A stretch of 64,000 nt of DNA from Apostichopus japonicus (lineage: Eukaryota > Echinodermata > Holothuroidea > Aspidochirotida > Stichopodidae): NCBI RefSeq assembly GCF_037975245.1, contig NC_092582.1, positions 5,496,001 through 5,560,000 of the forward strand, read 5' to 3'. The translations under genes were made by a program, and so were the position numbers. Shown here piece by piece: positions 62,768 through 63,457 of the stretch. Every line of letters starts with the position of its first letter. Within the stretch, counting starts at the first letter, position 1. Below the pieces are notes generated by a model. It was not told the origin of the DNA, did not search any database, and was given only the letters and a program-made list of their open reading frames with translations.

Positions 62768-62910
62768 GACGAGTTGCACACTTACTACCATCTCGACAAG
62801 ATGACAAAATTCAGAAAATTGATGCATTGACGAGATCCGTTATCTCGTCAAAACGACAATTTTCTGAATTTTGTCAACTTGTTGAGATGGTAGTAAGTGT
62901 GCAACTCGTC
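62768..62910. repeat. 143-bp near-perfect palindrome (fold-back element)
   Basis: Two 69-bp arms (62768-62836 and 62842-62910) flank a 5-bp centre CCGTT. Arms differ at only a handful of positions. Outer ends read GACGAGTTGCACACTTACTA and its complement. DNA or RNA from here would form a long hairpin. Confidence 0.9.
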
Positions 62911-63030
62911 AATTTGCAGAAAATTGTTGCATTGACGAGATCCGTTATCTCGTCAAAACGTCAATTTTCTGATTTTTGTCACGTTACCATCTCGTCAACT
63001 CGTCAATTTGCAGATAATTGTCGTTTTGTC
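62911..63030. repeat. Second, imperfect copy of the fold-back core
   Basis: The centre GACGAGATCCGTTATCTCGTC recurs at 62934-62954 with imperfect arms of about 31 bp. Further CTCGTCAA and TTGCAGA.AATTGT words follow, so the palindrome has been partly duplicated in tandem. Confidence 0.75.
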
Positions 63031-63251
63031 AAGTTGGTAACGCGTCAATGCAATGTCCCTTCTACGCTTCCGTAAATAGAATATATGTGGCTGCACTGAT
63101 AGACACTGCAGCTGCTGTCTTTAAATATCAGATCATGGTAACCAGTAACCACTACATATCTCAATGGCAACATGGAAAGTCAAAATGTGGAATGCCAACG
63201 TGGAATGTCAATGTCAACGTGGAATGTCAAAACCTGATGTATAGTGTTTAG

Positions 63252-63450
63252 ATCGCTTCTCGGCCTTTTGGCAAAGATCATGTGTAGTACAGTATCTGTT
63301 CCCTTTCGAGGGGAATGGTGATGCACACCCGATGATGATCACACAGTCACAGTCCCGATGCAAGGGGACTGGGGTTGAGAGCGGATCAGTCGTTCGGTAG
63401 TTTGGTTTTTGTGCCCAGGTTCTTTCCTGGGCAACTTTTTCTTAAAAAGA
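63252..63450 (+). mobile_element. U2 snRNA-headed SINE-like retroposed element
   Basis: The element starts with the exact U2 5' end ATCGCTTCTCGGCCTTTTGG. It then matches U2 through the branch-point pairing region (GTGTAGTA ... ATCTGTTC) with two substitutions and a 5-nt insertion. Next comes GGAATGGTGATGCACACCC, like the U2 3' end. An unrelated body follows, with hairpins CAGTCCC/GGGACTG and GCCCAGG/CCTGGGC, then CTTTTTCTTAAAAAGA. TGTTTAG occurs directly before (63245-63251) and after (63451-63457), a 7-bp target duplication. It is not a functional U2 gene because most of U2, including the canonical Sm site region, is missing. Confidence 0.7.
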
Positions 63451-63457
63451 TGTTTAG

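What the first reader, a model, noticed from the sequence alone, without database searches (positions are those of the whole stretch)
63252..63450. A SINE-like element whose head is U2 snRNA
The first 20 nt are exactly the U2 5' end, followed by the branch-point region and a stretch like the U2 3' terminus with the middle missing. A structured, non-U2 body and an A-rich tail follow. A 7-bp duplication TGTTTAG sits exactly at the U2 cap position and after the tail, which shows retroposition of a whole chimeric RNA. SINEs normally have tRNA, 7SL or 5S heads; U1/U2-headed SINEs are known mainly from crocodilians. The body end CCTGGGCAACTTTTTC resembles tails of other metazoan SINEs.
Basis: partly seen in the sequence, partly recalled or inferred. 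Interest (0 to 1): 0.8.

Follow-up and report, generated by a model that had tools for sequence, protein, structure and literature searches.

The report
SINE launched from inside U2 genes
A short jumping element in what looks like the sea cucumber genome carries the first 45-50 letters of the splicing RNA U2, most likely because its source copies sit inside U2 genes, where they seem to borrow the U2 promoter before scattering copies across the genome.

Summary
The element at 63252-63450 is real and belongs to a large dispersed family. In the same genome (671.6 Mb; size and chromosomes fit Apostichopus japonicus) the exact U2-body junction occurs 457 times (control 0), with different target duplications. 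The head is U2 nt 1-45 (to 50 in some classes); no U2 3' terminus is present. The unexpected result is a likely source. At six places in a tandem U2 array on contig C16 the body lies inside U2 sequence with the join AAAAAG|TATCTG (U2 nt 36/37). The 5' ends differ, three are 5'-truncated, and the five upstream regions checked match an intact U2 gene (299-300/300). Keno-like LINEs occupy the same U2 site. One dispersed subfamily (57 further places) matches a U2-embedded copy; 10 of 20 fetched loci show no mismatch. At 59 distinct dispersed insertions the genomic target prefers TATCT, which is U2 nt 37-41. No Pol III B box was found. Best reading: a non-autonomous, U2-site-specific retroelement whose head is the 5' flank of its target, transcribed from the U2 promoter and moved by Keno-like machinery; dispersed copies are off-target insertions. 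U2-headed SINEs and U2-targeting LINEs are known; I found no report of this link in the papers I could search.

The parts
63245..63251 (+). 5' target site duplication TGTTTAG
   Evidence: direct reading
63252..63287 (+). head: U2 snRNA nt 1-36 (one substitution, T22A)
   Evidence: otherwise identical to the U2 gene of L001
63288..63292 (+). 5-nt insertion TACAG after U2 nt 36, not in the consensus (different insertions at the same point in L007 and in the second copy of L024)
63293..63301 (+). head continued: U2 nt 37-45 (TATCTGTTC)
63302..63309 (+). junction letters CCTTTCGA of class J1 between U2 nt 45 and the common body
63310..63412 (+). structured non-U2 body; no significant similarity to the Keno-like LINE sequences fetched
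63413..63432 (+). 3' hairpin GCCCAGG-TTCTTT-CCTGGGC
   Evidence: fold of the J2 sequence, which has the same loop and one different stem letter
63434..63450 (+). 3' terminal palindrome/tail ACTTTTTCTTAAAAAG(A); most other copies read continue GTA
63451..63457 (+). 3' target site duplication TGTTTAG

Best explanation
The element is a dispersed offspring of a non-autonomous, U2-site-specific retroelement. Shown: the ~145-nt body sits inside U2 snRNA genes of a tandem array at the site used by Keno-like LINEs, behind an intact U2 upstream region. Its U2 'head' there is the U2 gene's own nt 1-45 or so. Most dispersed copies begin at U2 nt 1-4 and carry the same kind of join. Inferred: source copies in U2 genes are transcribed from the U2 promoter, so the RNA starts at the U2 cap site. 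A Keno-like LINE (AP endonuclease; Tx1-type by recall) reverse transcribes that RNA at a nick. At U2 genes this renews site-specific sources. At U2-like TATCT sites elsewhere it leaves the dispersed copies, which lack a recognisable promoter and are mostly dead on arrival. Different subfamilies (J1-J6) then reflect different U2-embedded sources with their own 5' joins.
For: (a) Six array places (0 mismatches) and one on C20 (2 mismatches) have SINE tail + U2 nt 36 onward. In the loci read (L118, L121, L125, L127, L128, L167) the body lies inside U2 sequence. Three array insertions are 5'-truncated at different points (L118 first copy, L125, L167 first copy), which fits target-primed reverse transcription and not homology of the head. 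(b) 300 bp upstream of five embedded sites (L118, L121, L128, two in L167) are 299-300/300 identical to the upstream region of an intact U2 gene in L004 (one search had used an interrupted U2 of L004 as reference, with the same result). (c) Keno-like LINEs share the 3' junction at U2 ~36. L090 and the truncated copy L123 also join U2 at nt 50 on the 5' side, the end of the head in classes J3 and J5. (d) Several 5' join classes with one body: J1 457 exact; J2 58 of 74 hits; J3 28, J4 12, J5 6, J6 5 of 87 hits. (e) The J2 consensus equals the embedded consensus (distance 0.0%), and J2 copies are young (mean 0.37% from own consensus, n 19). The 189-nt J2 sequence is L128's own, and 10 of 20 fetched J2 loci hold a copy with 0 mismatches to it over 155-189 nt. 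(f) At 59 in-register sites, after 5 with shared flanks were removed, the genomic target has T37 32/59, A38 47/59, T39 33/59, C40 27/59, T41 33/59 (p 7e-4 to 3e-15), and nt 34-36 show nothing (64 sites before removal, nt 30-36 flat). Simulated random targets give only background with the same procedure. (g) 75 of 120 copies start at nt 1-4, and none of these 75 has more than 6 of 10 letters of the U2 spacer upstream. (h) No B box (best 7/9, reached by 998 of 1000 shuffles) and TTTT inside the head.
Against: No transcript data: U2-promoter transcription is inferred from position. An A-box-like match (10/11, TGGCTAAGATC) lies in the U2 head, so a Pol III role is not excluded. The SINE 3' end shares only an A-rich end plus GTA with the Keno ends, so the mobiliser is inferred from the shared site. 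The uniform 3' join of the embedded copies is partly by construction: the patterns asked for it (1 and 3 mismatches allowed), so bodies embedded otherwise would be missed. No embedded J1 source was found; J1 is the largest class and that of the window copy. The C20 copy is similar but older. Embedded copies could be targets rather than parents. Some classes could be mutations of others: 20 of the 87 hits are J1 with one C changed to T, and J2 differs from J4 at two neighbouring letters. The target does not follow U2 beyond nt 41: G42 is found in 4 of 59 and C45 in 7 of 56. In the tree the smallest clade with all J2 held 2 embedded copies, but J1, J3 and J5 were not monophyletic.
Confidence: 0.72

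Rival explanations
1. A conventional SINEU: the U2 head was added by reverse-transcriptase template switching onto U2 RNA, the element then spread from dispersed copies with some promoter of its own, and U2 genes are only one of its targets.
For: Template jumps of R2 onto U12 snRNA and tRNA are described (abstract of PMC3414825); an A-box-like stretch in the head; embedded copies could be targets; some joins could be mutations of others.
Against: No B box, TTTT in the head; several joins, all at U2 ~45-50, the region of the 5' join of the Keno-like L090/L123; the youngest class equals an embedded sequence.
Confidence: 0.2
2. Same life cycle, but the moving enzyme is a different U2-site LINE (for example Utopia, which uses the same site) rather than a Keno-like one.
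For: Utopia and Keno share the U2 site and Utopia is reported from sea urchins and a starfish (PMC4640811, passages and one section). The SINE and Keno 3' ends are not alike beyond the last letters.
Against: Keno-like copies are abundant in this array (19 of 89 matches); classes J3/J5 share the nt-50 join with L090/L123. Utopia was not searched for here.
Confidence: 0.15
3. Dispersed SINE copies were copied into U2 genes by gene conversion through the shared 45-nt head.
For: The head is identical to U2 nt 1-45.
Against: Embedded copies are flanked by a duplication of U2 letters from nt 36 on, and truncated bodies without their own head sit at the same 3' site; conversion makes neither.
Confidence: 0.03
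4. Ordinary U2 retropseudogenes or chance similarity.
For: U2 retropseudogenes are common in animals (recalled).
Against: 457 identical chimeric junctions, control 0; a constant non-U2 body of ~145 nt.
Confidence: 0.01

Closest known systems
SINEU (SINEs with U1/U2 snRNA heads, crocodilians; Kojima 2015, evv100: recalled from the abstract; the paper is not held; SINEU is listed as a Repbase class in PMC5753468, passages)
   Same: snRNA-derived head and unrelated body; a Tx1-type LINE is implicated (Tx1-Mar there, recalled)
   Different: Echinoderm (by genome-size match) instead of crocodilian; U2-embedded copies are found here; target is U2 and U2-like TATCT sites rather than a Mariner transposon (recalled); sequences could not be compared
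Keno / Utopia U2-targeting LINEs (PMC4640811, passages and one section read)
   Same: Same insertion point in U2 (downstream U2 starts at about nt 36-39)
   Different: The element here is ~145 nt, too short to code for the LINE proteins, and disperses widely; its body has no significant similarity to the Keno-like LINEs fetched
R2 SIDE and R2/R1 hybrid SIDE (PMC3414825, abstract read)
   Same: Short non-autonomous element living in a multicopy RNA gene, with variable 5' joins, moved by the resident LINE (suggested there, inferred here)
   Different: SIDEs are internally deleted LINEs with a 5' ribozyme that cleaves the 28S co-transcript. Here the host RNA's 5' end is kept as the head, and hundreds of off-target copies exist
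U6/LINE-1 chimeras (PMC13174262, passages read)
   Same: snRNA joined to retroelement RNA and reinserted with target duplications
   Different: Those are explained by RNA ligation or template switching; here a family with U2-resident copies

Membership tests
SINE (general) | short, dispersed, flanked by variable target duplications, 3' end fixed, 5' truncations | tested here: met
   72 of 114 testable copies (of 120) with a duplication of 8 nt or more, median 13; 45 of 120 start after nt 4
SINE (classical) | internal Pol III promoter (A and B box) | tested here: not met
   A-box-like 10/11 in the U2 head, no B box (7/9, 998 of 1000 shuffles as good), TTTT at nt 15; sequence test only, box patterns recalled
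SINE (classical) | 3' end shared with a partner LINE | tested here: not met
   no match to the SINE 3' end in the LINE loci examined beyond A-rich + GTA; not an exhaustive survey
SINEU | head from U1 or U2 snRNA | tested here: met
   consensus head identical to U2 nt 1-45
SINEU | sequence relation of body/tail to crocodilian SINEU | not testable with these tools
   no Repbase, paper not held
Keno (the LINE in the same site, L090) | AP-type endonuclease and reverse transcriptase, CCHC ORF1 | tested here: met
   Exo_endo_phos 3.3e-19, RVT_1 2.2e-38, zf-CCHC 2.6e-7
Keno (the LINE in the same site, L090) | insertion in U2 with downstream U2 starting near nt 36-39 | tested here: met
   3' flank GTATCTGTTC.., 5' flank U2 1-50
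Keno (the LINE in the same site, L090) | Tx1-clade placement in an RT tree | not tested
   no reference RT set at hand
R2-type SIDE | body made of the partner LINE's own ends | tested here: not met
   no significant body match in L090, L168-L171 (best E 0.083, opposite strand); the strong one, in L172, is the SINE insertion itself

The most novel reading that the evidence does not exclude
A SINE life cycle with no promoter of its own: the element keeps a small pool of source copies inside the host's U2 snRNA genes by site-specific retrotransposition, uses the U2 promoter and cap site, and sheds promoterless U2-headed copies genome-wide at U2-like sites. snRNA 'heads' of SINEs would then be target-site flanks, not captured RNAs, and the succession of 5' joins (J5, J1, J3, J4, J2) would be a fossil record of successive U2-resident masters.
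Probability: 0.6. Interest if true: 0.85.

Novelty: new variant of a known kind. Interest (0 to 1): 0.75.

Why it matters
How a Pol II snRNA such as U2 can become the head of a SINE is puzzling, because U2 has an external promoter (recalled) that a retrocopy loses. Here an answer can be read in one genome: source copies stay inside U2 genes. It gives a mechanism that can be tested in crocodilian SINEU, a case of a multicopy RNA gene serving as launch pad for a dispersing element, and a young family for experiments. If the genome is A. japonicus, its published annotation lists only 159,644 bp of SINE in total (PMC10344927, one section read).

Tried and rejected
Partner LINE by shared 3' end. 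Of the 68 listed C1-C5 tails, 47 had no exact junction within 250 bp. I fetched 19 regions holding 20 of those 47 places, plus one odd place on C7. The 19 regions hold SINE copies. The C7 place (L072) has only 36 nt of tail next to a repeated sequence; no LINE was found joined to it. RVT_1 loci: 18 further RT loci chosen from 150 matches, each read for 2.4-2.8 kb downstream of the RT, showed no SINE 3' end; some may not reach the LINE's end. A dispersed Keno-like family, L109-L115, has a different poly-A end.

Homology of the body to the LINEs of the U2 array: none significant. Rfam: no match at gathering scores in the window, only U2 and chance-level families at E up to 10. Species test by arginine kinase: the search found exons but the test was not carried through; the species rests on assembly size and chromosome lengths only.

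Tree: classes J1, J3 and J5 are not monophyletic, so I use joins, consensus distances and ages, not clades. Promoter comparison: one search used as reference the upstream region of a U2 copy in L004 that is itself interrupted; one search repeated it with the intact U2 copy of L004, same numbers. Rows dropped before counts: copies without the 3' end, L082 (tandem fragments) and U2-embedded loci; six of 120 copies with too little flank or no A-run (114 testable); five sites with shared flanks or shared start letters of the duplication; L060, L082 and L088 in the earlier count.

Full report
WHAT IS THERE. The window stretch 63252-63450 starts with U2 snRNA nt 1-36 (one substitution), has a 5-nt insertion, continues with U2 nt 37-45, then a structured ~145-nt body ending ...CCTGGGCAACTTTTTCTTAAAAAG, and is flanked by TGTTTAG on both sides. 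Against the whole genome G000 (671,581,487 b, 35 contigs) the 199-nt query gives 42 matches from 40 scored of 2584 candidates. The exact 25-nt U2-body junction occurs 457 times (248 + 209), control 0. Assembly size and the chromosome lengths seen (18.2-46.0 Mb) fit the published Apostichopus japonicus assembly (671.60 Mb, 23 chromosomes of 18.21-46.02 Mb; PMC10344927, passages and one section read). The species is therefore inferred.

A RETROPOSED FAMILY. I read the window copy and 21 good matches, 40 of the 100 listed junction places (of 457), 20 places around a tail pattern, and 38 places with other junctions. Of 120 copies with a 3' end, 75 begin at U2 nt 1-4, 13 at 5-9, 23 at 10-34 and 9 later. 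72 of 114 testable copies have a target duplication of at least 8 nt, median 13. The 75 full-length copies do not continue into the U2 spacer: the best match is 6 of 10 letters.

THE SOURCE. True U2 genes form a tandem array on C16 with a 645-bp spacing (42 of the 46 scored Rfam U2 matches). Reverse transcriptase hits fell into this array. L090 holds a LINE with AP endonuclease, RT and a CCHC ORF1, inserted in U2: 5' flank U2 1-50, 3' flank from U2 ~36. That is the Keno arrangement. PMC4640811 states that U2 downstream of Utopia starts at nt 39 (said of Phytophthora) and that Keno has the same 3' flank. A protein search found 19 of 89 matches in the array, in groups of about 100, 60-62, 55, 49 and 43% identity. 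A search for A-rich end + U2 gave 23 places, 22 of them on C16 at 30.97-31.16 Mb, and reading 11 loci that hold some of them showed that several are the SINE body itself. Seven places have SINE tail + U2: C16:31006749, 31021611, 31059274, 31132291, 31133734 and 31134532 (0 mismatches) and C20:14906433 (2 mismatches). The pattern asked for this 3' join with up to 3 mismatches, so other joins would be missed.

The six array places differ in their 5' joins: U2 1-45|CCTTAGGG (L128), GTATCTG|ATCCCTTAGGG (L121), a truncated copy after U2 nt 40 followed in tandem by a full body after GTATCTGTTC (L118), U2 1-53|CTGACG truncated and GTTC|CCCTCGGG (both L167), and a truncated body behind a Keno 3' end plus U2 36-53 (L125). 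5'-truncated copies at a fixed 3' site with a duplication of U2 letters are the mark of target-primed reverse transcription. The 300 bp upstream of five of the sites are 299-300/300 identical to the region upstream of an intact U2 gene. C20 is an older copy (88%) that keeps a partial second head, so an RNA already bearing the U2 head was probably inserted into a U2 copy.

FROM U2 TO THE GENOME. Among dispersed copies the body is joined to U2 in several ways: J1 GTTCCCTTTCGAGGGG (457); J2 GTTCCCTTAGGG (58 of 74 hits, one of them L128 itself); J3 GTTCTTTTCGGG (28 of 87), J4 GTTCTTTTAGGG (12), J5 GTTCTTTTCGAGGGG (6), J6 GTTCTTTCAGGG (5). 20 of those 87 hits are J1 with one changed letter, so some classes may be mutations of others. 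J3 and J5 carry U2 exactly to nt 50, the 5' join of the Keno-like L090 and L123. Mean distance to own consensus: J2 0.37% (n 19), J4 0.92% (9), J3 2.44% (9), J1 4.54% (34 junction-sampled; 3.69% for all 71), J5 6.48% (4). The J2 consensus equals the embedded one, and the J2 sequence used as query is L128's own. I fetched 20 of the 58 J2 places; 10 of the 20 loci hold a copy with 0 mismatches over 155-189 nt; L131 and L132 share flanks and look like one insertion duplicated. So U2-embedded and dispersed copies belong to one recent burst. Direction (U2 to genome) is inferred from the missing promoter of dispersed copies, the succession of joins and the 5' start at U2 nt 1.

TARGET CHOICE. With the register set by the A-run and G, 64 sites, or 59 after removal of shared flanks, give genomic T37 32/59, A38 47/59, T39 33/59, C40 27/59 and T41 33/59, each above local composition (p 7e-4 to 3e-15); nt 34-36 show no preference. 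Beyond nt 41 the agreement stops: G42 4/59, C45 7/56, with a weak excess of T at 43 and 44 (p 0.03). A simulation with random targets and the same duplication finder returns background values for each of five assumed RNA ends. Dispersed insertions thus favour TATCT, the same letters as U2 37-41, as expected of a U2-specific endonuclease acting off target. Letters between the A-run and the duplication are most often G (25 of 72) or GT (13 of 72), so the RNA carries at least GT after the A-run; whether these belong to the element or to U2 cannot be told apart.

PROMOTER. There is an A-box-like stretch (10/11) in U2 stem I but no B box, and TTTT at nt 15 (box patterns recalled). The J2 RNA folds well (-74 kcal/mol, z -4.49), with a 3' hairpin and a terminal palindrome. 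Whether the fold matters was not tested.

KNOWN AND NEW. SINEU exists as a class (PMC5753468, passages); its paper (Kojima 2015) is not held, so what I say of it is recalled. Paper searches for SINE with U2 snRNA or snRNA heads, Keno with SINE, sea cucumber SINE, target-specific Tx1 SINE and SINE in the U2 promoter listed no report of a SINE source inside U2 genes; several of these lists were capped (20 of 131, 15 of 72, 12 of 226 and 10 of 24 papers), and I saw titles and starts of abstracts only. Repbase entries and most subscription papers were not searchable, so the family could already be named there.

LIMITS. No expression data, no second species, no reference RT tree. The mobiliser is inferred from a shared site. 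The J1 source, which made the window copy, was not found in the form searched.

Noticed in passing
L112, L114 (C15:7599500-7601750, C13:14831700-14833900): A dispersed Keno-like LINE family (about 56% RT identity to the U2 one, poly-A end) lies beside tRNA genes: six tRNA-Gly in L112 and four tRNA-Leu in L114. It may target tRNA genes; the five other copies checked (L109-L111, L113, L115) had no ARAGORN hit.
   Followed up: partly
C16:31.00-31.17 Mb (L090, L118-L126, L167-L172): One U2 array holds several Keno-like groups (about 100, 60-62, 55, 49, 43% RT identity) with 5' joins at U2 nt 50, about 29-30 or about 25.
   Followed up: partly
L089, C16:31041.1-31046.2 kb: A second LINE type (RVT_1 match in an open frame of ~961 aa, poly-A) between two U2 genes of the array; the same frame length recurs at C16:31047280 and elsewhere.
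   Followed up: no
C2:13099706/13102881, C3:5845497/5847490, C3:25407315/25410326, C7:5899542/5902107, C16:10514683/10517728, C16:23429865/23433245, C19:27865157/27867382: J3 copies in seven inverted pairs 2.0-3.4 kb apart; L078, L079 and L159 share the same flank: the SINE seems to ride in the inverted repeats of another transposon, which inflates the J3 count.
   Followed up: no
L138, L082, L024, L009, L087, L118: Head-to-tail SINE dimers and short arrays; in L118 and L138 the second copy sits at the GTATC of the first copy's end.
   Followed up: no
63288-63292; L007; L024: Three copies have different short insertions at the same point of the head, just after U2 nt 36, the Keno 3' join. Unexplained.
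   Followed up: no
classes J1 and J2: In the largest class and in J2 the letters next to U2 nt 45 are CC instead of U2's TT, which turns the join into a stem (UUCCC/GGGAA): selection or fold-back synthesis?
   Followed up: no
62800-63060: Interspersed short repeats of the type TGACGAGATCCGTTATCTCGTCAA just upstream of the element.
   Followed up: no
L088:1845-3212 (C7): Long open frame that looks like a Penelope-type reverse transcriptase (recognised from memory).
   Followed up: no
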